DNA from: a virus
Reading direction: 5' to 3' (one strand)
Virus record (IMG/VR): IMGVR_UViG_3300017697_002289
Span: 1 to 22,366 of that record
Length of the DNA: 22,366 nt
Shown here: positions 1-22,366 of the stretch, in pieces
Numbering within the stretch: position 1 is the first letter of the stretch
Layout: every line of letters begins with the position of its first letter
Notes under the pieces: model-generated
The model's input: only the letters and a program-made list of their open reading frames with translations
Told to the model about the DNA's origin: nothing
Databases searched by the model: none
Position numbers and translations under genes: made by a program

Positions 1-481
1 TGTGGCTACTCTACGCATCACTTGCCCTATATTTGTACTTCGCCAATTAGGTAAGCACCAAGTAGGATTTTCCTGGAGTGAGGTTAGTCGTAGGTATATT
101 ACAGGCAGCCCTGAGTTTTGGCTCCCCGATGATATTAGAACTCGTCCCGAGAATATTAAACAAGGTAGTCAGGCTAAAGAGTGGAGCGAGGAGGAGGAGG
201 ACTATCTTAAAGATGTGTTTCTTAGGCAAAACAACTCTGCATTACACAGGTATAATACCTTGTTAAGAAAGGGAGTAGCCCCAGAGCAAGCCCGAGCTAT
301 TCTCCCCCAATCCATGTACACTACTTGTGTAACTACAGGAACCCTTCTAGGGTGGCATCACCTATATAAACTAAGGACTGAGGAGCATACTCAATTAGAA
401 ACTCAGGAGTATGCTAAAGCAATTGGTAAAATAATGGGGGAGCTTTTCCCTACTAGTTGGGAAGCATTATGCAAACACTAA
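1..481 (+). CDS. thyX: Flavin-dependent thymidylate synthase ThyX, 5'-truncated
   Basis: ThyX makes dTMP from dUMP using methylene-tetrahydrofolate and FAD, supplying thymidylate for phage replication. The visible 159 residues are the C-terminal part of a protein usually 210-250 residues long; the start lies left of the window, so the GTG at position 2 is probably internal. The ThyX signature appears as K-H-Q-V-G-F-S-W-S-E-V-S-R-R-Y (about residues 17-31), a variant of the RHR-x-x-S-x-N-E-x-S-x-R-Y motif with Ser where Asn is usual. The conserved C-terminal block with A-R-x-I-L-P (about residues 97-102) and the T-E-E-H-T-Q-L-E region (near 125-132) also match. Its stop overlaps the start of the SbcD-like gene by 13 bases, as in an operon. 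The family call is firm; activity is not shown. Confidence 0.9.
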   Translation, partial: VATLRITCPIFVLRQLGKHQVGFSWSEVSRRYITGSPEFWLPDDIRTRPENIKQGSQAKEWSEEEEDYLKDVFLRQNNSALHRYNTLLRKGVAPEQARAILPQSMYTTCVTTGTLLGWHHLYKLRTEEHTQLETQEYAKAIGKIMGELFPTSWEALCKH

Positions 482-1479
482 TAATCGGGGACTTACATTT
501 TGATAACAAGCCTATGGGTATGCTTAATGCTCAGAAGGAGGCCATCAAAAAAATATGTAAAGACAACATGGATTGTGATAAGGTTATTTTCTTGGGTGAT
601 CTGATGATGCACAGGAATCCTAGACCAACAGTTCTGCTTGCCCTAAAAGAGTTGATGGATGAAGTCTCTAAGGATAAAGAAGTATATATCCTACGAGGTA
701 ATCATGATAGCGTAACCAAGGCTGACGATGGAGTTACCGCTCTAAGCCTACTGGAAAGCTCTAAGGTAAAAGTAATCACCCAGACCTGGTACGACAACAA
801 AAACAAGTGGGCTTTCATCCCACACTATGAAGATGAAGAAAAAATTAAACAAGATCTTGCTGGCGTCCCTAAAGGTTATACTGTGTTCGGGCACTTTGGT
901 TATTATGGGGTTCTTAACTCTGCTGGCGATGCTGATTTTAGTCTGTCTCTATCCGATTTTAGGAACCCTACGATTCTTGGGCACATTCATAAAGAAGGTA
1001 GGAATGGAAACGTCACCGTCCTTGGAACCCCTTACTCCACTAATTTTGGAGAAGCAGGGAAGGATTGTTTCTACGGAATTCTTAGAGAAGATGGGTTGGA
1101 AAAGGTGCCGTCCCTCTGGGGACCAAGACACCTAGTAGTAGACTATGACAACGTAGAGGATAACTTAGATTGGATTAATCAGGATTCACATCCCTACGAG
1201 TACACGCTTATAAGAATTAACATCAGCACTATTGATGAAGATCAAGACCGCATCGCTGATCTGTGTGACCAGATTAACGTAGGCTCTTTAGAGATTAAGT
1301 ACAAGCCTCTTCTGGATGAGAAAGAAGAGTTTGTAACTGACGGTAGAATATTTACAACCGCACTTAACGACGAGTTGATTGACCACTATATTAACTCAAG
1401 TAAATCAAAGATTAACAAAGACGAACTCTTATCGGGGCTAAAGCTTATTCATGAAAATCAACAAGATAGAAATCAATAA
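469..1479 (+). CDS. SbcD/Mre11-type nuclease subunit (T4 gp47-like)
   Basis: This is the metallophosphoesterase subunit of a Rad50-Mre11-type complex, which in T4 (gp46/gp47) resects DNA ends to start recombination-dependent replication. The 336 residues carry the calcineurin-like metal motifs in order: D-L-H (residues 8-10), G-D-L (43-45), G-N-H-D (77-80), G-H-F (141-143) and G-H-I-H (171-174). The ATG at 469 is chosen because G-D-L-H follows six residues later as in the family and G-G-G-A-A-G sits upstream; a TTG at 457 in the same frame is less likely. The gene overlaps thyX by 13 bases and the SbcC-like gene by 29 bases, so the two subunits are probably co-translated. All expected metal ligands are visible. 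Its partner next door makes the assignment strong. Confidence 0.93.
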   Translation: MQTLIIGDLHFDNKPMGMLNAQKEAIKKICKDNMDCDKVIFLGDLMMHRNPRPTVLLALKELMDEVSKDKEVYILRGNHDSVTKADDGVTALSLLESSKVKVITQTWYDNKNKWAFIPHYEDEEKIKQDLAGVPKGYTVFGHFGYYGVLNSAGDADFSLSLSDFRNPTILGHIHKEGRNGNVTVLGTPYSTNFGEAGKDCFYGILREDGLEKVPSLWGPRHLVVDYDNVEDNLDWINQDSHPYEYTLIRINISTIDEDQDRIADLCDQINVGSLEIKYKPLLDEKEEFVTDGRIFTTALNDELIDHYINSSKSKINKDELLSGLKLIHENQQDRNQ

Positions 1480-3037
1480 TTTTTATTCTATAAAGAAAGT
1501 AAAGTTTACTTTCGATAAGCATGAAGGCATCGTGTTGATCGAAGGAGACAATAAGGATACTGGTGGAAGTAATGGCTCTGGAAAGAGCGCACTAATTGAA
1601 GCTGTTGTTTGGGGCCTATTTGGTAAGACGATTCGCAAGTCTACTGAAGAGGCTTTGATTAACAATAAAGAAAAGAAGAACTGCTCAGTTAAGATTACTG
1701 TCAATGATGATCTGGTTATAGAGCGAGGTAAGAAGCCAGTATTCCTACGTCTGCACAGAGGTGACAAGGAGATCACCAGAGACAATGCTCTGAATACTCA
1801 GGCTTTGATTGATGAACTTCTGGAGACAAACTACAAGGTGTTCTTAGCATCGACGGTCTTTGGTCAGCAGAATAACATTGAGTTCATAAATGCTACGCCA
1901 GAGGACAAGAGAACCATCATTAAAAATTTCCTGAATCTGGATGAGTTATTCTCATTAAGAGAATCAGTTAAACGCTTGAAGTCTGAGTACTCACAGACTG
2001 TAAAGCAACAGGATGCCATAGTAAAGGAACATACAAAAAGCATTGAGTCATTTGATAAGAAGCTACTCTCATTATCTAAGTTAAAAGAAGCCGTAGAGGG
2101 GAAATATGATGAGGCAACCCTTGCTCTTTCCTTGGACGAGGTTATTAAGACAGAGCGAGACAACGCTGCATTAGAGAGAACTAAGATTAGTATCCGCACC
2201 AAGATGAATGAGGTGGACCAGAAGATCCTTGCTCTAAACAAGAGACTCAAGAACCCTACTGAGTCAGAGCCATGTGACAAGTGTGGTCAACCCATCACCA
2301 CTCCCTATCATCCTAAAAGAATTCAATTAGAGATCCAGGAGCAGTTAGATCTGATGACATCATGTGAAGAGCATCGGGATGAGTGTTTGTCCAAGGTAAA
2401 AGATCTACCAATAACCTCCACCGAGTATCACAAGATCATTGAGTACAATCAACTCAAGAAGGAATCAGAAACCTTTGAGGACATTAAAAAAGAAACCCTA
2501 GAGAAGATTCAAGAGGCACATGGTATTAAGCAAGAGTACAATAGCAAGTACGAGATCATGCGATTCTGGGAGAAGGCATTTTCTGAATCAGGTATTGTAA
2601 AATACATTATTAAAAATGTTCTAGAATACTTTAACTCTAAAGTAAACTTCTACCTATCTCACCTGTCTCAAGGCAAGTTCTTCATTGAGTTTGACGAGAG
2701 CTTAAAGGAAACCATCACGCATAACAAGAACTCTATTCATTATATGTCCCTTTCGGGAGGAGAGAAGAGGAAGATTAGTCTGTCTGTGATGCTAGGTTTA
2801 CAGGAGCTTTTACGCATCTCTCACAATCAAAAAAGTAACCTAATGTTTTTCGATGAAGTTGCTGAAAATCTGGACCAAGAAGGGCTTGAAGGTCTCTACA
2901 TACTATTGTCTGAATTAAAGAAAGAGAAGACTTTGTTCGTAATTACACATAATAATTATCTTAAATCTTTAATGGACAACGCAAGGACAATCACTATGAT
3001 AAAGTCCAAAGGAATAACACGATTAAAAGGAAAGTAA
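1451..3037 (+). CDS. SbcC/Rad50-type ATPase subunit (T4 gp46-like)
   Basis: This is the ABC-type ATPase partner of the upstream nuclease; the pair would process double-strand ends during phage recombination and replication. The 528 residues show Walker A G-S-N-G-S-G-K-S at 39-46, a Q-loop-like F-G-Q-Q near 137-140, a charged coiled-coil-like middle (about 165-370), a zinc-hook C-D-K-C at 275-278, the ABC signature L-S-G-G-E at 434-438, Walker B ending F-F-D-E at 466-469, and a switch histidine at 500. The length is close to T4 gp46 (about 560) and far shorter than bacterial SbcC, so the coiled-coil arms are short. The ATG overlaps the gp47-like gene by 29 bases. All catalytic motifs are intact. 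Confidence 0.95.
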   Translation: MKINKIEINNFYSIKKVKFTFDKHEGIVLIEGDNKDTGGSNGSGKSALIEAVVWGLFGKTIRKSTEEALINNKEKKNCSVKITVNDDLVIERGKKPVFLRLHRGDKEITRDNALNTQALIDELLETNYKVFLASTVFGQQNNIEFINATPEDKRTIIKNFLNLDELFSLRESVKRLKSEYSQTVKQQDAIVKEHTKSIESFDKKLLSLSKLKEAVEGKYDEATLALSLDEVIKTERDNAALERTKISIRTKMNEVDQKILALNKRLKNPTESEPCDKCGQPITTPYHPKRIQLEIQEQLDLMTSCEEHRDECLSKVKDLPITSTEYHKIIEYNQLKKESETFEDIKKETLEKIQEAHGIKQEYNSKYEIMRFWEKAFSESGIVKYIIKNVLEYFNSKVNFYLSHLSQGKFFIEFDESLKETITHNKNSIHYMSLSGGEKRKISLSVMLGLQELLRISHNQKSNLMFFDEVAENLDQEGLEGLYILLSELKKEKTLFVITHNNYLKSLMDNARTITMIKSKGITRLKGK

Positions 3038-3038
3038 T

Positions 3039-4940
3039 ATGGCAAACACATCTTTAGAGGGCATGGGACAAGAAATTTTTGAAAGCAGATATGCTTACCC
3101 TGGGGAGACAAAGTGGGCTGACAGAGCCAAAGTGATTGCTAAAACCATGGCTTCTGCCGAGAGGGATGATGATAAAGAAAAAGTTGAAAAGTTATTTTAC
3201 GAATCTATCGGATCTGGTGATCTCATTCCTGGCGGCAGGATTATATTTGGCGCAGGTAGGAACCGTGGGCATCATAACTTGCTCAATTGTTATGTTATTA
3301 TTCCTGAAGATGATGTGGATTCAATTGGACAGACTGTGCAGGACATGTATCGCATCTCTTGCGCGGGTGGAGGAGTAGGCTTTAACGTATCAAAGCTTCG
3401 TCCTAAAGGAGATCACATTGGCAGCGTGAAGAACTCTGCTCCAGGATCCGTCTCTGTCCTGAAAATGATTAACGAGGTAGGTGAACATGTTAGGGCTGGG
3501 AAGAATCGTCGCACCGCTCTTATGGGCATACTTAATATCACTCACCCTGATTTACTTGAGTTTCTTTCAGTAAAGCTAGACCAAGGTGAGTTAAATAACT
3601 TTAACATCTCTGTAGCTATTACAAATAGATTTCTTGAAGCAGTAGAGCTTGGAGAAGATTGGTACTTTACTTTCAACAACAAGGAGTACCACTCGTATGA
3701 CATTGCTCGCATGAATCCTGAAGAGGATCGCAATGAGATTATTAGTGTCATTGGAATGGACGAAGAGGATGCATTATCCAGAGCCGAGAACTTTCAGAAA
3801 GTTTCTTGGACTGATTCCTTTGAGATGATCGGACAGAGGGACATCAAAGCGAGAGAGCTTTGGGATATGATCTGGAAAAATTCTGTAGAGTCTGGTGACC
3901 CAGGGATCTACAACATCGACCTTGCAAATAGCTATACTAATGTTTCGTACTTTGAAAGTCTGGATTCAACGAATCCTTGCGGCGAGATTTCCCTGCCGTC
4001 TTATGGGAATTGCTGTTTGGGTAATATTAATCTTAACAACATGGTACTTGATGACGGTAGTGACCTCGATTGGAAACGTCTGGCAAAGACTGTACGAACT
4101 GGAATCCGCTTTCTAGATAATGTCCTAACTGTAAATACTTTCCCAACTGAAGAGTGCAAGAAAGTTGGCGAGAGATCTCGTAGAATTGGACTAGGTGTTA
4201 CTGGTCTTCATTACATGTTGATTAAGCTTGGTTTAAGTTATGGTAGTGAGTCCTGCCTAGAGTTTTTAGAAAGATTATTTGGAACGATCAGAGATGAAGC
4301 GTACAAGATGTCTATATACCTTTCCAGGGACAAGAAGCCTTTCCCTGAATTCGACTACAAGAAGTACCTTGAAGAAGATTTTGCAAAGACTCTCCCAGCT
4401 AGGATCCGAATGCTTATCAAGCGATACGGGATCCGCAATGCTGTTATGCTTACAATCCCTCCTTGTGGTACTATCAGTATGTTGCACGGGGTTAGTTCAG
4501 GGATTGAGCCTATTTTCTCTGCTATGTATAACAGGCGTTATCGGCACAACAATATTTGGAAGGAACAATTAGTTGTCGATCCGCTATTCCAGAAATATTA
4601 TGATGAAAAGAAAAATTTGGAACCGTTCATTGGAGCCTATGATGTTCTCCCCGAGGATCACATCAAAGTACAGGCAACCATTCAAAAGTATATCGACTCC
4701 TGTATTTCAAAAACAATCAACCTTCCTTCTACCTCCACGCCTGAAGAGTTTTCTCAAGCGGCTTTGGATTATGCTCCGTACTTGAAGGGTCTTACCGTGT
4801 ACCGTGCTGGAGCAAAAGAAGGAGAACCCCTTCAAGCTATTCCATTGACGGATGAAAACATTGAAAAGCATATGGCTGCGAAGGCCGAGATTTCTGTGGC
4901 AGCAGGAGATGTCTGCTCACTAACAGGGGGTGATTGCTAG
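3039..4940 (+). CDS. nrdJ: Class II (adenosylcobalamin-dependent) ribonucleotide reductase
   Basis: NrdJ reduces ribonucleotides to deoxyribonucleotides using adenosylcobalamin as radical source. The 633 residues include the first redox cysteine at C84 (L-N-C-Y), the N-P-C-G-E active-site loop at 312-316 (thiyl C314, E316), the partner cysteine C325 eleven residues later, and the P-P-C-G-T block at 474-478. The C-terminal C626 and C633 would pass electrons from thioredoxin or glutaredoxin. No radical-tyrosine subunit gene (NrdB) or glycyl-radical activase is adjacent, which agrees with class II. The reading frame is uninterrupted, with no intein or intron, although phage reductases often carry them. 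The start lies one base after the SbcC-like stop. Class II rather than class I is supported by motif context and the absence of a partner gene, not by a database search. Confidence 0.92.
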   Translation: MANTSLEGMGQEIFESRYAYPGETKWADRAKVIAKTMASAERDDDKEKVEKLFYESIGSGDLIPGGRIIFGAGRNRGHHNLLNCYVIIPEDDVDSIGQTVQDMYRISCAGGGVGFNVSKLRPKGDHIGSVKNSAPGSVSVLKMINEVGEHVRAGKNRRTALMGILNITHPDLLEFLSVKLDQGELNNFNISVAITNRFLEAVELGEDWYFTFNNKEYHSYDIARMNPEEDRNEIISVIGMDEEDALSRAENFQKVSWTDSFEMIGQRDIKARELWDMIWKNSVESGDPGIYNIDLANSYTNVSYFESLDSTNPCGEISLPSYGNCCLGNINLNNMVLDDGSDLDWKRLAKTVRTGIRFLDNVLTVNTFPTEECKKVGERSRRIGLGVTGLHYMLIKLGLSYGSESCLEFLERLFGTIRDEAYKMSIYLSRDKKPFPEFDYKKYLEEDFAKTLPARIRMLIKRYGIRNAVMLTIPPCGTISMLHGVSSGIEPIFSAMYNRRYRHNNIWKEQLVVDPLFQKYYDEKKNLEPFIGAYDVLPEDHIKVQATIQKYIDSCISKTINLPSTSTPEEFSQAALDYAPYLKGLTVYRAGAKEGEPLQAIPLTDENIEKHMAAKAEISVAAGDVCSLTGGDC

Positions 4941-5455
4941 TGGCACTTTACGAATGGATATGCAAGGACTGTAATATTTATTGGGATGCGGAACATCCCA
5001 TGGGAGAAGCACCAAAACAAACCGAGTGCCCAAAGTGCGGCACTTTATCAAATAGATACTGGCAAAGCGAGGGTTGTGCGATCTCATTTAAAGATGATGG
5101 TCAGGGTAATCACGGTACAGGAGCCCAAGACTTTCATACTGTAAGAAAAAGGTATGAAAAATTTCACAAGGATGGGTACGATAAAGACTCTGCCAATAGG
5201 TTTCTTCATGGAGAGATTAAGAGAACCAAGGAAGCCATGGATAACGAGGAGTTTCGTTACAAATCTGCCACTATTGACTATGATAAATATGCCAAAGCTC
5301 ATGGCATCAAAAAGGTAACCCACACTCAAGCATTAAAAAAGCAGGAACATGCTAAAAAATTGACTATGGAAGCCTATGATAGGGCCAACAGGATGGGCTA
5401 CAAAGATATAGGTAGCACACACTTAGACCCAGCGAAACCAAATAAAAACAAATAA
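4940..5455 (+). CDS. FmdB-type zinc-ribbon protein
   Basis: This 171-residue protein opens with a short zinc ribbon, C-K-D-C at 8-11 and C-P-K-C at 30-33, of the FmdB/CxxC putative regulatory type. The remainder is a lysine- and acid-rich, probably helical region with no recognised domain. The GTG at 4940 is preferred because it overlaps the nrdJ stop by one base and follows the purine run AGGGGG (about 4925-4930) at a usual distance; a TTG two codons upstream is possible. Its place between the reductase and the helicase suggests a role in nucleic-acid metabolism or late transcription, but no function can be read from the sequence. The zinc ribbon is clear; the family name is moderately secure. 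Confidence 0.72.
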   Translation: MALYEWICKDCNIYWDAEHPMGEAPKQTECPKCGTLSNRYWQSEGCAISFKDDGQGNHGTGAQDFHTVRKRYEKFHKDGYDKDSANRFLHGEIKRTKEAMDNEEFRYKSATIDYDKYAKAHGIKKVTHTQALKKQEHAKKLTMEAYDRANRMGYKDIGSTHLDPAKPNKNK

Positions 5456-5460
5456 CCACC

Positions 5461-6768
5461 ATGGCATACGATTTCAGCGAGAATATCCAAAGAGGGATTC
5501 TCTACCTCTTGAAGTCTAATAAGGACTTCTATCTTCAGATTGTTAATCTGGTTCAACCTACCTACTTTGAGTTCCCCTCCCATGCTAAGATATTTGGCAA
5601 GGTTAAGGAGCATTACGAGAAGTATGGAAAATTACCTACCGATGATTTTATCATTCAGGATGTAAAGCCTACACTTGGAGCCCGAGAGAGTGCTTCTGAT
5701 TATGAGGACGAACTCTCATACATTAATAATGTAGACACTTCCACCGTAGGAAACACCGAGTATATGCTCGACCTTGTAGAGGGCTTCGCCAAAAAGGAGG
5801 CGATGAAGAGTGCGATTGCTGATAGTATTTCGCTAATCAAGGAAGACCGCATTGATGAGGTTGAGGCTCTAGTCAAGCAAGCCCTCCTGATTAACAGAGA
5901 TGTAGATACGGGTCAAGACTATTTCGAGGACTTCGCAGGTCGTTGGGATCGTATCTTTAATAAGAAAACAGAGGATAAATACAAGACAGTCCTACCCGCT
6001 ATAAATAAATCTCTAGAGGGAGGTTTGGGTTCAAAAGAAATGGCTATGGTGGTCGCCCCTCCTGGAGTGGGTAAGTCTTTGTACCTTGTCAATCAAGGAG
6101 TTCAATCCATGATTGAAGGTAGGAAGGTCTTGTATATCTCTCTTGAGATGAGTGAGGATAAGATTGCTCAGAGGTTTGATTCTATCATGACCCTAGTTCC
6201 TCAGTTTAAACTTAAAGATCCTGCTAATCAACTCACAGTAAAGGAAAGACTTGAGATGTTTAAGGTGGAGTTTCCTGGAAGCGAGCTAGTCATCAAAGAG
6301 TTCCCTACTGGTCAGGCATCTATTAACACTATCCGCAACCTGTTGGTCCAGCTTAAAAACTATGATGAGTTTGAGCCCGACCTCCTAATCGTGGACTACC
6401 TTGAACTGCTTCGTCCGACCCGTGAGATTCAACAGGAGTATCACGCTCAACAGAAGGTCGCTGAGGAGCTTAGAGGAGTTGCTATGGAGTACAACTTCCT
6501 CGTCTGGACCGCCACTCAGACCAACCGACAAGGTAGGATGGTGAAGGTTATTACAGATGCAGAGCTTGGAGACTCTTACGGCAAGATCAGAACTTGTGAT
6601 TTCGCCATGTCATTGAACCAGTCCGAGGAGGAGTTCGATGAGGGCAAGATGAGAGGGTATGTTATCAAGTCTCGTAATGGTAGACCTAGGTTTTCTGTTC
6701 CCATGGATGTTGATTACAGCACACTTAGAATGTCAGAGGGAGATGAGGTATTTACAGGAGAAGCATAA
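5461..6768 (+). CDS. Replicative DNA helicase, DnaB/T4 gp41 type
   Basis: This is a hexameric RecA-fold helicase that would unwind DNA at the phage fork. The 435 residues comprise a helical N-terminal domain (about 1-150) and a RecA-like ATPase domain. Walker A is A-P-P-G-V-G-K-S at 199-206, the S-L-E-M motif follows at 227-230, and Walker B L-L-I-V-D-Y is at 308-313. Further C-terminal motifs are A-T-Q-T-N-R (351-356, sensor-like) and K-S-R-N-G (403-407, arginine-finger region). Length and motif order match DnaB-type phage helicases. The ATG at 5461 has no clear Shine-Dalgarno upstream, only A-rich sequence and CCACC; the next Met in frame is far inside, so this start is kept. No primase gene is visible in the window. 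Confidence 0.93.
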   Translation: MAYDFSENIQRGILYLLKSNKDFYLQIVNLVQPTYFEFPSHAKIFGKVKEHYEKYGKLPTDDFIIQDVKPTLGARESASDYEDELSYINNVDTSTVGNTEYMLDLVEGFAKKEAMKSAIADSISLIKEDRIDEVEALVKQALLINRDVDTGQDYFEDFAGRWDRIFNKKTEDKYKTVLPAINKSLEGGLGSKEMAMVVAPPGVGKSLYLVNQGVQSMIEGRKVLYISLEMSEDKIAQRFDSIMTLVPQFKLKDPANQLTVKERLEMFKVEFPGSELVIKEFPTGQASINTIRNLLVQLKNYDEFEPDLLIVDYLELLRPTREIQQEYHAQQKVAEELRGVAMEYNFLVWTATQTNRQGRMVKVITDAELGDSYGKIRTCDFAMSLNQSEEEFDEGKMRGYVIKSRNGRPRFSVPMDVDYSTLRMSEGDEVFTGEA

Positions 6769-7112
6769 TGAATTCTAAAAAAGATTACCCCGTCCATCCC
6801 ATGGAAGTTTATACTGGGGTTAAGACCTTCAAGATAGAACAAAGAAAACTAACAAAGGATAACCTTTACGGCTGTGTGGAATTTCCTAAGTCCCTCCTAA
6901 GTATTGATCCAACCCAATGTGATGCAGACTACAGGGGAACGCTTCTGCATGAAATTTGCCACATTGGATTTGATTTATATGGATTAGGGGATGACGATGA
7001 GATGCCTCAGATGGGTAATGAGTACCTAACAACCGTTACCTCCAACATGATACAGCAACTTGCAGGATTGAATGAGGAACTATTTAAGTTTATCTTCGAC
7101 ATACCTAAATAA
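6768..7112 (+). CDS. Small HExxH metallopeptidase-like protein
   Basis: This 114-residue protein carries H-E-I-C-H at 61-65, the zinc-binding and catalytic motif of gluzincin-type peptidases. A downstream N-E-Y-L segment (84-87) puts E85 in a position that could be the third zinc ligand. The layout, a short protein with a central HExxH and a helix after it, resembles the minimal ImmA/IrrE-like fold. Its ATG overlaps the helicase stop by one base, with ACAGGAG upstream at good spacing. ImmA-type peptidases often cleave repressors or regulators, but the substrate here is unknown and an inactive structural role is possible. The motif is seen directly; the family is an inference. Confidence 0.55.
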   Translation: MNSKKDYPVHPMEVYTGVKTFKIEQRKLTKDNLYGCVEFPKSLLSIDPTQCDADYRGTLLHEICHIGFDLYGLGDDDEMPQMGNEYLTTVTSNMIQQLAGLNEELFKFIFDIPK

Positions 7113-7115
7113 GGT

Positions 7116-7691
7116 ATGAAAGATCTTCAATTTAAAGATATCCTCGTTCGGCAAGACTTGCCTTTAACCAGAGCTTCTGTTTATGTTAATGGGAGGTGGT
7201 CATTTGCTTCACTTGCTGGCCCTACAAGAGTTACATCAGAGCAAGACTTCTTCTTAATAAACTATCCCTTTGGGATTAATAAAACGGGAACTAAAGATCC
7301 TTCAAGGTATACCGTTAAAGGAGCCCCTGGAGATTATATTTCTAGAGATCAAAGAGGAGTCTTAGCATTAGTGACTGCATCACACTATGCTTTGTTGTTT
7401 CCTGGACCGCAGCAGATACCTACCTCACCGCCCTCATCGGATCAACTGAAAAATCCAAACTTTTTAACAAAAACTCAAGCAGAATCGGTGGAGAATGACT
7501 CTGATAAGGTACTGATAGGTGATCGTGAGTTCACACTCCCGTCTACTCAGAATAAAACTATAACAATCGTAGAAACCCCGACAGGACAGGCACAAGTCTA
7601 CTTTACTGGAGATACAGGCGTAGTATATGACTACGACCTCTCTGGCATGGTAGAAGTTTCTCTTCCTTCGAAACCGACATCAGACTATTAA
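7116..7691 (+). CDS. Hypothetical phage protein, 191 residues
   Basis: I do not recognise this protein. It begins MKDLQFKD and is rich in beta-forming residues with several glycine turns, for example P-G-D-Y-I (72-76) and T-G-D-T-G-V (164-169 region). A proline- and serine-rich linker (about 98-112) divides it into two parts of roughly 95 and 80 residues. There is no signal peptide, membrane segment or cysteine cluster. The ATG lies three bases after the previous stop, with only a weak AAGG directly upstream. The two-part beta-rich shape could suit a structural or binding protein, but its neighbours are replication genes and no function should be assigned. Confidence 0.7.
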   Translation: MKDLQFKDILVRQDLPLTRASVYVNGRWSFASLAGPTRVTSEQDFFLINYPFGINKTGTKDPSRYTVKGAPGDYISRDQRGVLALVTASHYALLFPGPQQIPTSPPSSDQLKNPNFLTKTQAESVENDSDKVLIGDREFTLPSTQNKTITIVETPTGQAQVYFTGDTGVVYDYDLSGMVEVSLPSKPTSDY

Positions 7692-7693
7692 AT

Positions 7694-8125
7694 ATGCACG
7701 AACTAATTGAATCCCTTGAAGACTTTACTTGGGAAAACTACAAAGATATCAGCGATGCTCTCGTTCAGTTCAATGAGTACGAAGTAGAAAACGAGATGTT
7801 TCGACAAGCATCTATCTACTCGTACTATTATGGATTGATGGGCATGGCAAAGAAGATGGTCTCAGAGAGGAGTCTCGAACTGACTCGATTCACGTCACGC
7901 CTCCGCAAAGAAGCTAAACGCGACTCTCGCGTCAAGCTGACCGCAAAAGATCTCGACGATCTAGTGTTTGCTGACGATCAGTATCATGCAAGACAGACTA
8001 CTCTGGATGAGGCTACCTTCAAATACGAACTACTCAAAGGACTCGTCCGAGCCCTTGAGCAGAAAAAAGACATGTTGCAGCAAGCGTCTGCAAATAAACG
8101 AGAAGAAACTAAATTATACAAGTAG
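7694..8125 (+). CDS. Probable UvsY-like recombination mediator
   Basis: This is a 143-residue, highly charged and mostly helical protein directly upstream of the single-strand binding protein gene. UvsY in T4 (137 residues) loads the UvsX recombinase onto gp32-coated DNA. The similarity is in length, charge pattern, an aromatic-rich N-terminal helix (Y-S-Y-Y-Y at 42-46), a basic middle (R-L-R-K-E-A-K-R, 69-76) and a C-terminal helix with R-A-L-E-Q-K-K-D-M-L (119-128), which recalls phage UvsY-like families. There is no catalytic motif to confirm it. Its position next to gp32 and in a set with gp46/gp47/gp41-like genes supports the role. No UvsX/RecA gene lies in this window. Treat the name as a candidate. 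Confidence 0.5.
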   Translation: MHELIESLEDFTWENYKDISDALVQFNEYEVENEMFRQASIYSYYYGLMGMAKKMVSERSLELTRFTSRLRKEAKRDSRVKLTAKDLDDLVFADDQYHARQTTLDEATFKYELLKGLVRALEQKKDMLQQASANKREETKLYK

Positions 8126-8131
8126 TCCAAC

Positions 8132-8145
8132 TATCATACTATACT
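8132..8145 (+). promoter_or_regulatory. Possible promoter -10 region upstream of gp32-like gene
   Basis: The 38-base gap before the gp32-like gene contains TATCAT (8132-8137) and TATACT (8140-8145), both close to a sigma70 -10 hexamer. No convincing -35 box is present at the expected distance. A separate promoter would fit the high level of single-strand binding protein phages need, but this is suggestive only. Confidence 0.25.
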
Positions 8146-8149
8146 AACT

Positions 8150-8155
8150 AAGGAG
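8150..8155 (+). promoter_or_regulatory. Strong ribosome binding site of gp32-like gene
   Basis: AAGGAG lies eight bases before the ATG at 8164 and is one of the best Shine-Dalgarno matches in the window. It fixes the start of the single-strand binding protein and suggests strong translation. Confidence 0.75.
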
Positions 8156-8163
8156 TAACTAAA

Positions 8164-8907
8164 ATGGCTATCGACCTCGAAGCTCTTCGCAAGAAGCATG
8201 AGCAACTTAACAACCCCGCTGGGGCTAACAACAACAACGCAGACTTTCTCAACAAGTTCTACCAAATTCCTGAAGGCAGCAATGCTGTAAGGATTCTTCC
8301 TTGGAAGACTGAGGAGCGGGAGTTCTATGCGGAGACTAAAATCCACCGAGTCCCTGGACCCGATGGTAATGTGAAAAACATTCACTGCCGTAAGGTACAC
8401 GGGGAGAACTGCCCCATGTGTGACCTTTATTACGCTCTCTGGAAGACAGGGCGCAAGGAAGACGAGGATCTTGCTCGACAGATCAAGCCCAGGGCTCGTT
8501 ATTACATGAACATTCTCGACAGAGAGAGTGGTGACATTAAAATCCTTTCAGTTGGCGTGATCCTCTTCAAGAAGATCATCGGTGCCATGCTCGACGAGGA
8601 CTTCGGTGACATTACTGATGTTGAGAAGGGTCACGACTTCAAGATCGTGAAAGAGATGGAGGGGCAATGGCCGAAGTACGACCAGTCTCAGCCTCGTCCT
8701 AAGTCCTCACCGCTCGGAAGCGCGGCTGAGATCTCATCCTCAATGGACAGCCTTCATGAGATCCATGGTCTTGTCAAGCTGGAAGAGTACGAGGAAGTAA
8801 AGAAAGCTGCCGCTACACTTACGAATGTGGCAGTCCAAGGTACATCATCACCACAAGAGGCTACTGATGTCTCTGATAACGATTACCTCTCTAAACTGCA
8901 AAGTTAA
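8164..8907 (+). CDS. Single-stranded DNA-binding protein, T4 gp32-like
   Basis: This protein would coat single-stranded DNA at forks and recombination intermediates. Its 247 residues show the gp32 plan: a basic N-terminal patch R-K-K (9-11) resembling the cooperativity region, an OB-fold core, and a zinc site made of H61, C75, C83 and C86, spaced much like H64, C77, C87 and C90 of T4 gp32. The flexible C-terminal part ends in D-N-D-Y-L-S-K-L, a short acidic tail that in T4 recruits other replication proteins; this tail is less acidic than T4's. Codon choice is visibly more GC-rich than in the glycan genes. It sits directly after the UvsY candidate. The gp32 family call is strong. Confidence 0.92.
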   Translation: MAIDLEALRKKHEQLNNPAGANNNNADFLNKFYQIPEGSNAVRILPWKTEEREFYAETKIHRVPGPDGNVKNIHCRKVHGENCPMCDLYYALWKTGRKEDEDLARQIKPRARYYMNILDRESGDIKILSVGVILFKKIIGAMLDEDFGDITDVEKGHDFKIVKEMEGQWPKYDQSQPRPKSSPLGSAAEISSSMDSLHEIHGLVKLEEYEEVKKAAATLTNVAVQGTSSPQEATDVSDNDYLSKLQS

Positions 8908-10526: not shown

Positions 10527-11370
10527 ACAGGAATTATTTAAGTCTTTAATGAAGAAGGAAGCTACTGTCGTAGGGAGACCTAGACTAGCTCCTAGTAAGG
10601 TGAAGATTGTGTCCAGTTGGACCAATCCTGGGGGCGGGACTGTAGCGCATATAAACCTAACTAATTTGCTAAATGATAACGGGTATGATTGCACCTTTTA
10701 TGGGCCTAATGAGTGGCACTTAGATAAGTGTAAATCTGATACGATTGATAAGTGTATCCTTGGCCCTACAGATATCCTTATAAGCCACTTCATTCAAGTA
10801 CCAGAGCAGGTGCAGGTAAAAAAGCATATTCTGTACTGCCATGAGAAAGATGTGTGGCCTCTCAAGACCGTTCCTCTGGCGCGGTATGATTCTATCGTAT
10901 TCATAAGTAATTCCCAAAAGGAGTGGCAAGGCGTAGATCACCCATCGACCATTATCCCTCCTATCGTTAAAAAGGTAAATTGGACAAATCCCAATAACGG
11001 GGTTGCTGGCGTAATTGGCAGCATTGACACAAACAAGCAAACCCACAAATCCATCCAAAGAGCAATAATGGCAGGATATCAGAAAGTTATGCTTTTTGGT
11101 CAAGTCAACGATACGCCTTATTTTAATGAGAAAGTCCAACCCTTGCTTGGAGCAGGGTCTGTAGTCTTAGCAGACCATGAGGACGATCCTACGGCGATGT
11201 ACGGGCAAGTAAGTGAGGTCTTCCACTCATCACTCAGCGAGACTTACGGGCTCGTAGAAGCCGAGTGTAGGCTCTCAGGAATACCATTCAATGGAGAGAG
11301 CAACGGGCAAGAGATTCTGGAAAAAGAGGAGATTTTAAAGCGATGGAAAAAGATAATCAACGGATCGTAG
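10507..11370 (+). CDS. GT4-like glycosyltransferase, second copy
   Basis: This 287-residue protein has the look of a compact GT-B glycosyltransferase. An N-terminal strand K-I-V-S-S-W-T-N (33-40) leads into P-G-G-G-T-V-A-H-I-N (41-50), a glycine-rich acceptor or nucleotide loop; a second Rossmann half begins near 166. An E-x7-E motif is seen as S-E-T-Y-G-L-V-E-A-E (E245 and E253), the donor-phosphate signature of GT4. It is shorter than the neighbouring 388-residue transferase and lacks the usual long linker. GTG 10507 is chosen for the AGGAG seven bases upstream and gives a 20-base overlap with the previous gene. Substrate cannot be read from the sequence. Confidence 0.72.
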   Translation: MSNQASKQELFKSLMKKEATVVGRPRLAPSKVKIVSSWTNPGGGTVAHINLTNLLNDNGYDCTFYGPNEWHLDKCKSDTIDKCILGPTDILISHFIQVPEQVQVKKHILYCHEKDVWPLKTVPLARYDSIVFISNSQKEWQGVDHPSTIIPPIVKKVNWTNPNNGVAGVIGSIDTNKQTHKSIQRAIMAGYQKVMLFGQVNDTPYFNEKVQPLLGAGSVVLADHEDDPTAMYGQVSEVFHSSLSETYGLVEAECRLSGIPFNGESNGQEILEKEEILKRWKKIINGS

Positions 11371-13316
11371 TTTTAACTACTTTGTACAATTGTGACGAGT
11401 GGATTGGTAAATGTATTCAATCCATAAAAGATCAAAATTACGATAATTACAAATGTTTTATCCTAAATGATATGTCCACCGACTCCTCGGTAGAGAGAGC
11501 AAAAGAAGCTATTGGGGAAGACTCCAGGTTTGTTATCGTGGAGAACACCAAGAAATTTTATCAAACGGGAAACTACGATCAGATTATTCGTAGTGATGAA
11601 GTTTTAGATAACGATATTTGCGTAGAGGTCGATGGGGATGATTGGCTGCCTGATAGTGGCGTGTTTGATCGCGTGATAGAGGCATACTCAGATGGGGAGA
11701 CTTGGATTGCGTTTGGGCAGTTTGAATACGCTGATGGTCGAAAAGGGTTTGCACAGCAGGGAAGCGTAGCTCAATGTAGAACTAGTGTATTTACAATGTC
11801 TCATCTTAGGACCTGGAAAGCTTTCTTATGGCGCAATATCCAAGTGGATGATTTGTATACCCATACAGGCTGGTACTCTGACGGAGGTGGAGATGTATTC
11901 TTTATGACTCCTATGTACGAAATGGCTACGGAACAGCACACTAAGTTCATGGAGGATATTAATTATATTTATAATGATAATAACCCATTGAATGATCACA
12001 AAAGAGAGGACAATCCTCAACATCATCACGCAGAGTACGCAAGGAAAAAACCCCCGTATGGTTCTTTAAACTTTGCATACCAACTTCTTACTCCGTATAG
12101 ATTTGATTTAGTTCCCAAGTTCTTGTATGCCGCATATAGAGAGGCAAACTTAAAGACAGGGTTCGCTGTTGATTTATATAAAGAGCACTTACGAGTTTGG
12201 AATGGTTTTAAAGAATATGATAATCCCGACAAAAATACATTTGAAAAGTTTAAGAAGTGTTTTGACGATATTATTGAATCCATGAAAGCCAAGGGTTTCG
12301 ATAAGGAATACGCAGTTCCCACCACTCCCGAAGGTCACCTATTAAATGGATCGCACCGAACTGCTGCTGCATATGTCACTAACACTACTTTAAGAACTAC
12401 AAAAACGACTGATCCTACTGCTGGTCAGGTAAACTGCGGCTCGCAATTCTTCAAGAACTTAGGGTTAGAAAAAAAGTATTTAGATCATATGGCATTAGAG
12501 TATGTTAAGCTAAAGCCTAGTACAAAATTGATTACATTACATCCTGCTAGGGATATTCAAAAAGAAGAGGCTGTAAGTGATCTAATCTATTCTAAAGTTC
12601 CTGTAGTCTATGATTCTGTAATACCCTTGAATAAAGAGGGATTTACAAATTATGTTAGCCAAATGTACTTTGGAGAGTCTTGGCTGAGTACTCCAAGTGA
12701 CCCTATCGCAGGAGCCAGATTAAAAGGTGATCTATGTTGGGGCCAATCTCCTGTTAGGATATTACTAATTGAAGAGGATAGCTTGGATACTTTAAATTCT
12801 CTTAAGGAAGAGATTAGAAGCTTATATAGTATTGATAAATCATCTGTTCACATTAACGATATGTATGAAGAGACACTAAGGTTAGCTCGCGTTGTGTATA
12901 ATCCAAATAGTGTTGATTTTTTAAATGTTGGAATTCCTAATTTGTCGCCTAAGCTAAGTGCCGAGTTAGAAAATTATAGGAAGACTATCGAAGGGCATCG
13001 TTTAAACCCAGACTTATTTTGTGTCACAGGCAGCGCCGTAATGACGATGTTTGGTCTACGAGAGTGCGCTGATTTAGATTACCTACACTATGACCCTAGC
13101 CATGTGATTCAAGGAAGCTCTTATATCAACTCACATGAAAAAGAGCTAAGTAAGTATCCAATGCACAAAGATGACATCTTGTTCAATCCTAATAATCATT
13201 TTTATTGGAACAATGTGAAGTTTGCATCTCTGGACTCTGTTAAAAAATTGAAAGCTCATCGAGGTGAAGAGAAAGATCTAGTAGATGTTAAATTAATGGA
13301 GGATGTGAATGTTTAA
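11343..13316 (+). CDS. GT2 glycosyltransferase fused to ParB-like and nucleotidyltransferase-like regions
   Basis: This 657-residue protein appears to have three parts. Residues 1-240 are a GT2 (GT-A) glycosyltransferase: strand I-V-V-L-T-T-L-Y-N (8-16), N-D-M-S-T-D-S-S (42-49) and the metal motif D-G-D-D (97-100). Residues about 245-350 are helical and lead to G-H-L-L-N-G-S-H-R-T (331-340), the G-x-H-R motif of ParB/sulfiredoxin-like folds. Residues about 380-530 form an unassigned domain with H-I-N-D-M-Y-E-E-T (503-511). Residues 555-657 contain V-T-G-S-A-V (561-566), A-D-L-D (576-579) and a late K-D-L-V-D-V-K (644-650), the G-S, D-x-D and K-D arrangement of nucleotidyltransferases. It overlaps both neighbours, by 28 and 8 bases. 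The GT2 part is firm; the other parts are motif-based inference. Confidence 0.75.
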   Translation: MEKDNQRIVVLTTLYNCDEWIGKCIQSIKDQNYDNYKCFILNDMSTDSSVERAKEAIGEDSRFVIVENTKKFYQTGNYDQIIRSDEVLDNDICVEVDGDDWLPDSGVFDRVIEAYSDGETWIAFGQFEYADGRKGFAQQGSVAQCRTSVFTMSHLRTWKAFLWRNIQVDDLYTHTGWYSDGGGDVFFMTPMYEMATEQHTKFMEDINYIYNDNNPLNDHKREDNPQHHHAEYARKKPPYGSLNFAYQLLTPYRFDLVPKFLYAAYREANLKTGFAVDLYKEHLRVWNGFKEYDNPDKNTFEKFKKCFDDIIESMKAKGFDKEYAVPTTPEGHLLNGSHRTAAAYVTNTTLRTTKTTDPTAGQVNCGSQFFKNLGLEKKYLDHMALEYVKLKPSTKLITLHPARDIQKEEAVSDLIYSKVPVVYDSVIPLNKEGFTNYVSQMYFGESWLSTPSDPIAGARLKGDLCWGQSPVRILLIEEDSLDTLNSLKEEIRSLYSIDKSSVHINDMYEETLRLARVVYNPNSVDFLNVGIPNLSPKLSAELENYRKTIEGHRLNPDLFCVTGSAVMTMFGLRECADLDYLHYDPSHVIQGSSYINSHEKELSKYPMHKDDILFNPNNHFYWNNVKFASLDSVKKLKAHRGEEKDLVDVKLMEDVNV

Positions 13317-14175
13317 AATTTATTTTGCTCCTGCTTGGGGCCTGACCTCAGAGGAAATGTTGGATGACTATAGACACCAAACCCCAGGTAATACAGGTGT
13401 CTGGAAAGACATGCAAGCAACAACAAATCCCGATGAGGCTGATTACTTAATTATTCAAGATTATTGTGACCCTGAGCTATTAGGGAAGTTCTCACCTGAC
13501 CAAGTATACTACTTTGGTAGGGAGGTTCCAGGCTTGGGGCCTATTGGTGATTATAGTAGTTGGGGGATTAATGTTTTCTCGTATGTTGATGAGTCTTCAC
13601 ACCTGTACACTAAATGGAGGTATCCTAATAAGTTTAGTGGTGGCGTAAACCGTAGTTATGACGAGTTGTACCAGATGGACGAGCCTCCGACTAAGACTAA
13701 ATTACTAAGCTGTATTCAGTCAGGAAAGCAAGCGTGTGAAGGTCATGTGAAAAGGGTCCAATTTTTACGAGAGTTCATAGATCGTAATCCAGAGGATTTA
13801 GATCTTTTTGGTAGCATTCCGTTCAGTAATACAAAACTGAAAGATGATGATAAGTGGGAAGGGTTAGCTCCTTATAAGTATTCGATAGCTTTTGATAATG
13901 GAAAGTACCCAAACTATTTTGCTACTCAATTTACAGACGCTATCTTAAGTTGGAATGTTCCCCTCTTCTGGGGTTGTCCAAACATTGATGAGTATTTCCC
14001 CGAGGGATGCTACGAAACTTTCGACATTGATGATTATAATGAGATAGACCGTCTTCTGGAGTTTATTAATTCAGATAAATATGATGATCGTATAGAAGCA
14101 CTACGAGAGGCGAGAGTTCGTATTTTAGATAAGTACAATCTGTGGCCTACTGTTTATGACGCTATAATGAAGTAG
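13309..14175 (+). CDS. GT10 fucosyltransferase-like protein
   Basis: This 288-residue protein resembles the alpha-1,3-fucosyltransferase family GT10, which transfers a 6-deoxyhexose from GDP-fucose. The diagnostic C-terminal block reads P-Y-K-Y-S-I-A-F-D-N (188-197), Y-F-A-T-Q-F-T-D-A-I (203-212) and V-P-L-F-W-G-C-P-N-I (217-226), matching the order of the conserved GT10 donor-site motif. In most members the middle piece reads T-E-K; here it is T-Q-F, so the glutamate and lysine are replaced. An upstream G-H-V-K-R-V-Q-F-L (145-153) also fits. GGAGG at 13298-13302 supports the start at 13309, which overlaps the preceding gene by eight bases. The donor may be a relative of GDP-fucose such as another GDP-6-deoxysugar, given the GDP-mannose dehydratase downstream. 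Confidence 0.82.
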   Translation: MFKIYFAPAWGLTSEEMLDDYRHQTPGNTGVWKDMQATTNPDEADYLIIQDYCDPELLGKFSPDQVYYFGREVPGLGPIGDYSSWGINVFSYVDESSHLYTKWRYPNKFSGGVNRSYDELYQMDEPPTKTKLLSCIQSGKQACEGHVKRVQFLREFIDRNPEDLDLFGSIPFSNTKLKDDDKWEGLAPYKYSIAFDNGKYPNYFATQFTDAILSWNVPLFWGCPNIDEYFPEGCYETFDIDDYNEIDRLLEFINSDKYDDRIEALREARVRILDKYNLWPTVYDAIMK

Positions 14176-14177
14176 AT

Positions 14178-14822
14178 ATGGATTATTATCATTACAACAC
14201 CGAGACCAGCGATATCCGACAACTCCTGCTTGATTTGTGGGAAGTAGAAGATTTAGAGAATCTGCACGAAGTTAAAGAGTACCCAACCTTTACAATGGAG
14301 GACAACTCTAATACTGAGTTCCATAAAAAGTTTTATGATAAGCTTAGAGGGGGTTGGCCTGAGTTTATGGAAGCCTACATCAAAATTGTAAAAACCCCAG
14401 AGTGGATAACCCCAGACTATCTGTACCAAACAACCCCAACACTTCGTATACATTTAGTTAACAACTGGGCAACGCCAGAGTTCCACAAAGATACGCAGAA
14501 AGGTTATAACCACCCAAACTATGAGAAGAACTGGGTGATCCCACTAACAAATTGTTACGGTAATAACTCACTATGGGTAGAAAGCAGTCCTGAGAAGTTT
14601 GATTTTCATCCTATTAAAATGTCGTATGGAGATTTAATAGCGTGGGACGGTGGTAAGCTATTACATGGCAATAAAATTAACGACACGCTAACAACTAGAG
14701 TGTCTTTTGATTATAGAACTTTAAACAAAAAACATTATCACCCTGAAAAGTGTACTAAGTCTGTAACTAATGGTCTACAATTTAAAGTGGGTTCCTATTA
14801 CGCGGAGTTTGAAGATGAGTGA
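14178..14822 (+). CDS. StrG-like 2-oxoglutarate/Fe(II) oxygenase
   Basis: This 214-residue protein carries the 2-oxoglutarate dioxygenase facial triad as H-K-D (103-105) and a distal L-L-H-G at 161-164 (H163), with R174 eleven residues later for 2-oxoglutarate binding. Around it, H-P-N-Y-E-K-N-W-V-I-P-L-T (112-124), N-N-S-L-W-V-E-S (129-136) and G-D-L-I-A-W-D-G-G (151-159) resemble the StrG family named from streptomycin biosynthesis. It would hydroxylate or otherwise oxidise a sugar or another small molecule. All metal and cosubstrate residues seem present. It follows the GT10-like gene after two bases and overlaps the cupin gene by eight. The substrate is unknown. Confidence 0.8.
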   Translation: MDYYHYNTETSDIRQLLLDLWEVEDLENLHEVKEYPTFTMEDNSNTEFHKKFYDKLRGGWPEFMEAYIKIVKTPEWITPDYLYQTTPTLRIHLVNNWATPEFHKDTQKGYNHPNYEKNWVIPLTNCYGNNSLWVESSPEKFDFHPIKMSYGDLIAWDGGKLLHGNKINDTLTTRVSFDYRTLNKKHYHPEKCTKSVTNGLQFKVGSYYAEFEDE

Positions 14823-21058: not shown

Positions 21059-21663
21059 TGAAGGCAGTCCTGTTTGATTTAGATGGTGTCCTAGTGGATG
21101 CCTGTGATTGGCATTATGATGCACTAAACCGTGCCTTAAAAGATGTTGTTAATTATACAATTGATAGGGATTCACATGATAAGATATACAATGGCATTCC
21201 AACTTTAACTAAGTTGAGTATCTTAAAAGAGATGGGGATTATTAGAGAGGAAGACTTTACCGAGATATCGGATCGAAAACAATGGTACACCATTCAAGTA
21301 ATTAATGATTTTTGTACAGAGTCAGTCTCTAAAATATCTTTAATGAAACTCTTGAAAGCAGAGGGGTACAAATTAGGGTGTGTTACTAATAGTATTAGGA
21401 AAACTGCTGAGTTAATGTTGGAAAGATCAGGAATACTAGAGTACATGGATGTAGTGATTACAAATGAGGATAGTGTAAATCACAAGCCCCACCCAGAGCA
21501 GTATATTCAGGCTTTAGTAATTCTTAATACTCTTCCTGAAAATGCTATTATCGTAGAAGACTCACCCAAGGGCTTACAGGCTGCAAGATTAACAGGTAGT
21601 CGAGTATTTCAGGTTAAAAACTCAACAGAAGTAACAAAAGAATTATTTAAAGACAAACTATGA
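21058..21663 (+). CDS. HAD-superfamily phosphatase / beta-phosphoglucomutase-like
   Basis: This 201-residue enzyme has the HAD motifs D-L-D-G-V-L-V-D (7-14; nucleophile D7 and acid D9), V-T-N-S (109-112), K143 in H-K-P-H-P, and V-E-D-S-P-K-G (166-172). The helical cap between motif I and II (about 15-95) and the V-L-V-D-A end of motif I resemble the beta-phosphoglucomutase-like subfamily. It could dephosphorylate a sugar phosphate or shift its phosphate before activation by the adjacent nucleotidyltransferase. ATG overlaps the gmd stop by one base. A GmhB-like role in heptose synthesis is less likely from the motif I sequence. The substrate is not evident. Confidence 0.85.
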   Translation: MKAVLFDLDGVLVDACDWHYDALNRALKDVVNYTIDRDSHDKIYNGIPTLTKLSILKEMGIIREEDFTEISDRKQWYTIQVINDFCTESVSKISLMKLLKAEGYKLGCVTNSIRKTAELMLERSGILEYMDVVITNEDSVNHKPHPEQYIQALVILNTLPENAIIVEDSPKGLQAARLTGSRVFQVKNSTEVTKELFKDKL

Positions 21664-22366
21664 ACATTTTAATTCCGATGGCTGGCGCAGGGTCCAGGTT
21701 TGAACAGGCAGGATACACCTTTCCAAAACCCCTTATTGAGATACATGGTAAGCCCATGATTCAAAAGGTGGTTGAGAACTTAAATATTGAAGGTCGTTAT
21801 ATCTTTTTAGTGCAAAAAGATCATTATGAAAAGTATGCATTGCAATATTTACTACCTTTAATCGCTCCAGGATGTGAGATCATCCAAGTAGACGGCGTTA
21901 CTGAAGGCGCAGCTTGCACTACTCTATTAGCTAAGAAGTTTATTGATAACGATACTCCTCTAATTACTGCTAACTCTGATCAGTTTATTGAATGGGAGTG
22001 GGACACAGAGGACTGTTGGAGTCACGCCTTTGATAGTGATGGGGGAATGCTAACCTTTAAAGCGACCCATCCTAAGTGGAGTTTTGCGAAATTAGGAGAA
22101 GACGGATACATTAGTGAGGTCGCTGAGAAGAAGCCTATTAGTGACAATGCAACAGTAGGTGTTTATCATTGGGCGAAAGGTTCCGACTACGTTAAGTACG
22201 CCGAGCAGATGATTGAAAAAGATATTCGAGTGAACAATGAGTTCTATGTTTGTCCCGTGTTTAATGAAGCTATTCAAGATGGAAAGAAGATCAAGTCTGT
22301 TCCAATTAAAAACATGTGGGGTTTAGGTACTCCTGAAGACCTTCGTTACTTCCTTACTTATTATAA
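21660..22366 (+). CDS. Sugar-1-phosphate nucleotidyltransferase, 3'-open
   Basis: This frame runs from ATG 21660 to the window edge, 235 codons without a stop. It is a GT-A fold nucleotidyltransferase that would join a sugar-1-phosphate to a nucleotide. M-A-G-A-G-S-R-F (7-14) is the nucleotide-binding loop, P-K-P-L (22-25) supplies the lysine K23, A-N-S-D-Q (104-108) places the metal aspartate, and G-L-G-T-P-E-D-L (221-228) is a C-terminal motif common in these enzymes. The start overlaps the HAD stop by four bases (ATGA). Since G-T-P-E-D-L is usually near the end, only a few residues are probably missing. The base (GTP, CTP, UTP or dTTP) cannot be decided; GTP would fit the Gmd route. Confidence 0.88.
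   Translation, partial: MNILIPMAGAGSRFEQAGYTFPKPLIEIHGKPMIQKVVENLNIEGRYIFLVQKDHYEKYALQYLLPLIAPGCEIIQVDGVTEGAACTTLLAKKFIDNDTPLITANSDQFIEWEWDTEDCWSHAFDSDGGMLTFKATHPKWSFAKLGEDGYISEVAEKKPISDNATVGVYHWAKGSDYVKYAEQMIEKDIRVNNEFYVCPVFNEAIQDGKKIKSVPIKNMWGLGTPEDLRYFLTYY

What the first reader, a model, noticed from the sequence alone, without database searches (positions are those of the whole stretch)
11343..13316. Three-part fusion: GT2 glycosyltransferase, G-S-H-R motif region and nucleotidyltransferase-like C-terminus
A 657-residue frame without stops joins a clear GT2 domain (D-G-D-D 97-100) to a region with the ParB-like motif N-G-S-H-R-T (335-340), an unassigned domain (about 380-530), and a C-terminal part with G-S (563-564), D-x-D (577, 579) and K-D-x-x-D (644-648). 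The first part is established GT2; the others are read from motifs. A single protein that both transfers a sugar and may transfer a nucleotide or phosphate has no common counterpart I know of, and could be a self-contained glycan-building module.
Basis: partly seen in the sequence, partly recalled or inferred. Interest (0 to 1): 0.8.

Follow-up and report, generated by a model that had tools for sequence, protein, structure and literature searches.

The report
Glycosyltransferase fused to triple nucleotide-handling module
A marine phage gene joins a sugar-transferring enzyme to a compact, strongly conserved block of three domains that look built to bind and transfer nucleotides or phosphates; the block has no family name in the databases searched, occurs beside sugar-transferring enzymes in phages and scattered bacteria (and, by fold, in giant viruses), and probably puts an unusual chemical cap on surface sugars.

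Summary
The protein is a GT2 glycosyltransferase (residues 10-143 match Pfam) joined to a ~410-residue module (246-657) without Pfam, NCBIfam or PADLOC family. AlphaFold models the module with high confidence (pLDDT 94.5).

The module is usually a gene of its own, directly behind a glycosyltransferase gene. It is in more than 80 uncultured viral contigs and in scattered bacteria, there often inside giant glycosyltransferase/FkbM proteins; by fold also in giant viruses; in none of 50,697 cultured phage genomes. Fusion to GT2 was gained or lost at least six times. Catalytic-type residues are almost invariant in 65 diverse copies.

Most likely it decorates the glycan made by its partner with a nucleotidyl or phosphoryl group. 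Anatomy is well supported; substrate and chemistry are inference. I found no description in the literature searched.

The parts
11343..12062 (+). GT2 glycosyltransferase domain (residues 1-240; Pfam match 10-143; DGDD 97-100 at 11631-11642)
   Evidence: PF00535 E 3.6e-15; a separate GT2 gene ending at this junction in L009 (5001-5711, module gene 5713-6975)
12078..12512 (+). ParB/Srx-like domain (residues 246-390) with box-II-like motif NGSHR at 12345-12359 (335-339)
   Evidence: G336 invariant, H338 and R339 in 64 of 65; ParB-like PHROGs weak; hhalign to ParB P 0.0022 with GxxR aligned; ParB/Srx phage proteins among Foldseek hits
12510..12911 (+). NDK-fold domain (residues 390-523); His503 at 12849-12851 aligns with the NDK catalytic His, Arg492 (12816-12818) with the Arg of the NDK TIRGDF motif; the NDK Lys of IKPD is replaced (His400 here, Phe in most)
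   Evidence: AF2 model; VIA Z 11.9 to 3pj9_C, rmsd 3.0, 119 aligned, and dozens of NDKs; hhalign collinear, P 0.024; H and R invariant in 65 of 65
12924..13313 (+). Pol-beta-type nucleotidyltransferase domain (residues 528-657): GS 563-564, DxD 577/579 (13071-13079), conserved Lys626, Lys637, Arg640, KDxxD 644-648 (13272-13286)
   Evidence: AF2 of this part alone, pLDDT 93.3; VIA Z 10.6 2fcl, 9.6 8an5, 8.2 6y8q, 7.9 4xje, 7.3 4fo1, 7.0 4o8s
13309..14175 (+). GT10 fucosyltransferase-like gene overlapping the end of the fusion gene (recurrent neighbour; fused directly to the module in L098, L105)
   Evidence: PF00852 E 2.4e-8; clustered homologues in 26 of 46 loci; fused in L098, L105, L115
15224..16072 (+). 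FkbM methyltransferase gene; FkbM domains lie in front of the module in one polypeptide in L100 and L115
   Evidence: PF05050 E 2.8e-8; PF05050 in L100 and L115 fusions

Best explanation
The gene makes a GT2 glycosyltransferase carrying at its C-terminus a conserved three-domain nucleotide-handling module: a ParB/Srx-like NTP-binding domain, an NDK-fold domain that keeps the catalytic-type His and a phosphate-binding-type Arg, and a MenT/ANT-type nucleotidyltransferase. Shown: gene, domain order, folds (by confident prediction), near-invariance of the catalytic-type residues, separability, repeated fusion and adjacency to glycosyltransferases. Inferred: the module works on the same glycan as its partner; the NTase uses Mg2+ held by Asp577/Asp579 to transfer a nucleoside monophosphate (or a phosphate-bearing group) onto a sugar hydroxyl, as ANT(2'') and LnuA do on drug sugars; the ParB/Srx-like and NDK-like domains bind or load the nucleotide or phosphate. 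The product would be a phosphate- or nucleotide-capped surface glycan on the phage particle or, as proposed for other phage glycan clusters, on the infected host.
For: Fold. Conservation in 65 modules: NDK His, Arg, Lys488, Tyr442, Trp447, Asp506 65/65; NTase D577 65/65, D579 64/65, D645 63/65, D648 63/65. Partnership: GT2 fused in 11 of 46 representatives, with at least 6 gains or losses forced by well-supported branches; in 30 stand-alone representatives a gene lies directly upstream (gap -46 to +19 nt), 11 of them PF00535 GT2, others GT7C, GT11 or GT25; GT10, FkbM or GT25 fused in bacteria; CapD/Gmd-type dehydratases in 27 of 46 and GT10 in 26 of 46 loci. Neobacillus and Ilyobacter carry it among gmd, GDP-fucose synthase-type and glycosyltransferase genes. 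Two-copy versions (L051, L114): the NTase of copy 1 lacks part of its motifs while copy 2 keeps DxD and KDxxD, as expected if one working NTase is needed. NTase residues match in order those essential in MenT1 (D41xD43, K137, D152; PMC11375011).
Against: No biochemistry. The NDK lysine is replaced by an aromatic residue in nearly all members, so ordinary NDK activity is unlikely. The ParB-like assignment rests on weak signals, and this part is absent or degenerate in some Chlamydiota and Dependentiae members. MenT, the second-best NTase match, acts on tRNA, so fold alone does not give the substrate. Neighbouring glycosyltransferase families differ (GT2, GT10, GT25, GT11), so no single acceptor is indicated. 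About two thirds of the upstream neighbours in stand-alone loci are not PF00535 GT2 at the threshold used.
Confidence: 0.5

Rival explanations
1. The module makes or regenerates the activated donor for its partner: ParB/Srx-like kinase step, then NTase to form an NDP-linked sugar or polyol, with the NDK-like domain recharging the NDP that the glycosyltransferase releases. The fusion would be a channelled donor-making and donor-using machine, comparable in logic to fucokinase/GDP-fucose pyrophosphorylase.
For: All three domains have folds that handle nucleotides; close link to glycosyltransferases and nucleotide-sugar genes.
Against: Partners GT2, GT10, GT25 and GT11 are not expected to share one donor; ordinary sugar nucleotidyltransferase-type genes are already in the clusters (window 21660-22364 by eye; L099 4454-5872); MenT/ANT-type NTases modify hydroxyls rather than sugar phosphates; the NDK lysine is lost.
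Confidence: 0.2
2. The module is a nucleotide-sensing regulator or scaffold that controls the partner glycosyltransferase, without chemistry of its own.
For: NDK-fold domains occur as parts of axonemal complexes (matches); one degenerate Chlamydiota copy exists (L144).
Against: DxD, KDxxD and the NDK His and Arg are invariant or nearly so down to about 30% identity; in two-copy proteins one NTase keeps its motifs.
Confidence: 0.15
3. The module is a toxin or defence-type nucleotidyltransferase (MenT/AbiE-like) carried in the accessory region of the phage, acting on host tRNA; its place among glycan genes is incidental.
For: Structural matches include MenT1 and AbiE.
Against: No PADLOC match; no recurrent small antitoxin-like gene seen beside it; repeated fusion to GT2, GT10, GT25 and FkbM in phages and bacteria.
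Confidence: 0.05

Closest known systems
MenT1 / TM1012 / DUF1814-type nucleotidyltransferases
   Same: Whole NTase domain superposes (Z 9.4-10.6); DxD and a conserved Lys followed by Asp residues in the same order.
   Different: Those are one- or two-domain proteins or tRNA-modifying toxins; here the NTase is the end of a ParB-like/NDK-like/NTase module linked to glycosyltransferases. A relative of the NTase part exists alone in some Chlamydiota (L145-L147), one weakly matching DUF6036.
Aminoglycoside 2''-O-nucleotidyltransferase ANT(2'')-Ia and lincosamide adenylyltransferase LnuA
   Same: NTase fold match (Z 7.9, 7.3); from general knowledge, they adenylylate a sugar hydroxyl of a small molecule.
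   Different: Drug-modifying single enzymes; no ParB or NDK domains; sequence identity about 10-16%.
Nucleoside diphosphate kinase (Pfam NDK, PF00334)
   Same: Fold over residues 390-523 (Z 11.9); His and Arg positions conserved.
   Different: No significant sequence match; active-site Lys replaced; embedded in a larger module; the bacterial hosts tested have a normal NDK as well.
ParB/Srx fold proteins (ParB, SerK, sulfiredoxin)
   Same: [NED]G[SA]HR box-II-like motif and weak profile matches.
   Different: No partition-protein parts; PNAS 2025 survey of ParB-fold fusions (PMC12704722) does not mention NDK or nucleotidyltransferase partners in its text.
Giant-virus proteins annotated 'Glycosyltransferase' or uncharacterized (Catovirus A0A1V0SAX2, Yasminevirus A0A5K0UAL1, Mimivirus LCMiAC01 A0A481Z0W0)
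   Same: Module-wide fold match, E 1e-14 to 1e-16.
   Different: Uncharacterised; identity 14-20%; seen by fold only.

Membership tests
GT2 glycosyltransferase (PF00535) | Profile match above curated cut-off and DxD-type motif | tested here: met
   56.7 bits against cut-off 23.3; DGDD 97-100
Nucleotidyltransferase fold | Pol-beta NTase core with hG[GS]...DxD | tested here: met
   Structure match Z 10.6 over 117 residues to 2fcl; DxD kept apart from one D to E
Nucleotidyltransferase fold | Nucleotidyl transfer activity | not testable with these tools
   needs an enzyme assay
NDK (PF00334) | NDK fold | tested here: met
   VIA Z 11.9, 119 residues, rmsd 3.0
NDK (PF00334) | Sequence match to the Pfam family | tested here: not met
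   no PF00334 match among families listed for 44 members at E up to 1
NDK (PF00334) | Active-site His and Arg | tested here: met
   aligned by hhalign and invariant in 65 of 65
NDK (PF00334) | Active-site Lys of the IKPD motif | tested here: not met
   aligned position is Phe 58, Tyr 3, His 3, Trp 1 of 65
ParB/Srx (ParB-CTPase fold) | Box II GxxR motif | tested here: met
   G 65/65, R 64/65; aligned to GERR of true ParB
ParB/Srx (ParB-CTPase fold) | Pfam ParB_N (PF02195) match | tested here: not met
   not among families matched by 43 members at E up to 1
ParB/Srx (ParB-CTPase fold) | Fold of the isolated domain | tested here: inconclusive
   only weak hits from the whole-module search; this part was not folded alone
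LicD/FKRP phosphotransferases (also NTase fold) | LicD sequence signature and structural match | tested here: inconclusive
   no LicD Pfam match; not among the structure rows, which does not exclude it
Known defence systems (PADLOC) | Match to a PADLOC model | tested here: not met
   0 of 5 proteins

The most novel reading that the evidence does not exclude
The module is a new class of glycan-modifying enzyme: a three-domain nucleotide and phosphate relay (ParB/Srx-like, NDK-like, NTase) that puts nucleotides or phosphate groups on surface sugars and has been attached to different glycosyltransferase families many times, shared by phages, bacteria and giant viruses.
Probability: 0.3. Interest if true: 0.85.

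Novelty: new variant of a known kind. Interest (0 to 1): 0.7.

Why it matters
A conserved enzyme-like module with three nucleotide-handling folds and near-invariant catalytic-type residues has no family name in Pfam, NCBIfam or PADLOC, yet recurs with glycosyltransferases across phages, bacteria and apparently giant viruses. If it caps glycans with nucleotides or phosphates, it would add a sugar modification to the chemistry that phages and bacteria use to change cell surfaces, and a fold-based handle for annotating many 'hypothetical' genes in polysaccharide clusters. It can be tested with one purified protein of about 420 residues.

Tried and rejected
Whole-protein Pfam and PHROG scans saw only GT2 and weak noise. 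Pfam on 44 modules: no family; NCBIfam gave only GT2-type matches or weak noise. hmmsearch of module and single-domain profiles against PDB sequences: nothing significant, so the kinships are seen at fold level only. Cultured phages by tblastn with three queries: only one GT2 match, no module. Toxin/defence reading rejected on context and PADLOC. A chance open frame rejected. Literature: the combination of NDK, ParB, glycosyltransferase and nucleotidyltransferase gave no paper; further searches gave none describing the module. The careful tree did not finish; the quick tree was used.

Full report
Observation. The frame is far longer than chance (longest open stretch in 200 shuffles 195 codons) and differences from its closest relative sit mostly on third codon positions in all parts, so the whole length is a selected protein. 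The window is a fragment of a T4-like phage, judged from gene content read by eye (recombination, helicase and single-strand-binding type genes, 457-8907), followed from 9339 on by a glycan gene cluster: GT4, the fusion gene, GT10, FkbM and SAM methyltransferases and a second GT2 by Pfam, and cupin-, DegT-, CapD-, GDP-mannose-dehydratase- and NTP-transferase-like genes by eye.

The protein is two things joined. Residues 10-143 are GT2 by Pfam. Residues 246-657 are a module that exists on its own. In phage contigs most copies are separate genes of about 390-440 codons; in L009 the GT2 gene stops and the module gene starts two bases later. Fused and separate forms are mixed on the module tree: eight changes by parsimony, at least six forced by well-supported branches (quick tree). 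In bacteria the module often sits inside polypeptides of up to 2,700 residues with GT2, GT10, GT25, FkbM and TPR-like parts.

Folds. AlphaFold2 on 44 diverse modules gave pLDDT 94.5 and pTM 0.93. Residues 390-523 match nucleoside diphosphate kinases, best Z 11.9 over 119 residues at 3.0 A; I had predicted this from the sequence (note) before the structure was run. Profile alignment puts invariant His503 on the NDK catalytic His and Arg492 on the Arg of the TIRGDF motif, P 0.024; the NDK lysine is not kept. The last 130 residues were folded alone (pLDDT 93.3) and match nucleotidyltransferases over the whole domain: TM1012 10.6, MenT1 9.6, AbiE 8.2, ANT(2'')-Ia 7.9, LnuA 7.3, JHP933 7.0. In MenT1 the residues D41, K137 and D152 are needed for tRNA modification (PMC11375011); the module has an almost invariant DxD and conserved Lys and Asp residues in the same order. 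The first part carries [NED]G[SA]HR; ParB-like PHROGs match up to 7 of 44 members weakly, ParB/Srx phage proteins are among the weaker fold hits, and the profile alignment with real ParB proteins aligns GxxR (P 0.0022; mismatched domain pairs gave 0.07-0.8). I call this part ParB/Srx-like with moderate confidence.

Modularity. In Chlamydiota the profile finds the NTase alone (L145-L147, about 135-156 aa, E 1e-5 to 1e-8), NDK-like plus NTase without the ParB-like motif (L143, read), and a degenerate copy (L144) besides full modules. L051 (phage) and L114 (Bacteroidota) carry a second NDK-like/NTase unit with a Cys-rich insert; in both, the NTase of the first unit lacks motifs (no KDxxD in L051; DxE and no KDxxD in L114) while the second keeps DxD and KDxxD. 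This points to the NTase as the working end.

Distribution. Viral contigs: 84 confirmed relatives, 80 returned. Cultured phages: none in 50,697 records with three queries. Cellular: 20 loci in the GTDB collection over many phyla; 1 of 297, 2 of 395 and 15 of 234 genomes in three phyla (several of the 15 are single-domain matches); plasmid-borne in Ilyobacter, Jannaschia and Paracoccus, annotated 'hypothetical protein'. Giant viruses by fold. This pattern looks like horizontal spread of an accessory module.

Context. Within about 6 kb in 46 loci: GT10-type genes in 26, CapD/Gmd-type dehydratases in 27. Upstream genes lie within -46 to +19 nt of the module start in 30 stand-alone representatives; Pfam names GT2 in 11, GT7C in 2, GT11 and GT25 in 1 each, epimerase/dehydratase in 2, and non-glycan phage genes in a few. 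Downstream: GT10 in 6 of 43, sulfotransferase in 2, RXYLT1_C in 2, FkbM in 1. Neobacillus: gmd, mannose-1-P guanylyltransferase-type gene, module, an Epimerase-family gene whose best reading is GDP-fucose synthase, GT10. Ilyobacter: gmd, GT, GDP-fucose synthase, FkbM, GT, module, GT. The glycan link is firm; the fucose link is suggestive.

Mechanism. Because partners range over several glycosyltransferase families, and ordinary donor-making enzymes are already in the clusters, a common role in decorating the glycan fits better than making one donor. An ANT-like NTase acting on a sugar hydroxyl, served by two nucleotide- or phosphate-binding domains, is the simplest reading: nucleotidyl or phosphoryl capping. 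This is inference. The chief rival is on-site donor synthesis and NDP recharging. The suggestion that phage glycan clusters remodel the host surface comes from a survey of jumbo phages (PMC7824862).

Novelty. No Pfam, NCBIfam or PADLOC family covers the module; I found no paper on this combination; the 2025 survey of ParB-fold fusions (PMC12704722) does not mention nucleotidyltransferase or NDK in its text. Each fold is known, so I file it as a new variant of a known kind (modular glycan-modifying enzymes) rather than categorically new.

Noticed in passing
L051 5983-8091; L114 3600-6985: Second NDK-like/NTase unit with a Cys-rich insert (DPDCx3HxGxxCxC), possibly metal-binding, in a phage contig and a Bacteroidota MAG; the first unit's NTase lacks motifs.
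   Followed up: partly
L010 7200-9458: Near the stand-alone module: by eye a CMP-sugar synthetase-like gene and a NeuB-type nonulosonic acid synthase, so the module is not tied to one sugar.
   Followed up: no
window 14178-14822: Gene without Pfam match that by eye looks like a 2-oxoglutarate/Fe(II) oxygenase (HxD...H), between GT10 and the cupin.
   Followed up: no
downstream neighbours of the module (alignment A9): Two downstream genes match RXYLT1_C, the ribitol xylosyltransferase family; in general knowledge that enzyme acts on a ribitol-phosphate glycan, which would fit a phosphate-bearing product.
   Followed up: no
L008 7111-7911 and homologues in other viral loci: A ~264-aa family of unknown function occurs near the module in 23 of 46 loci.
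   Followed up: no
collections: Module in over 80 uncultured viral contigs but in none of 50,697 cultured phage records: an isolation bias worth noting.
   Followed up: partly
L098, L101, L102, L107, L109: Cellular polypeptides of 2,000-2,700 residues that string together several glycosyltransferases, FkbM, TPR-like repeats and the module.
   Followed up: partly
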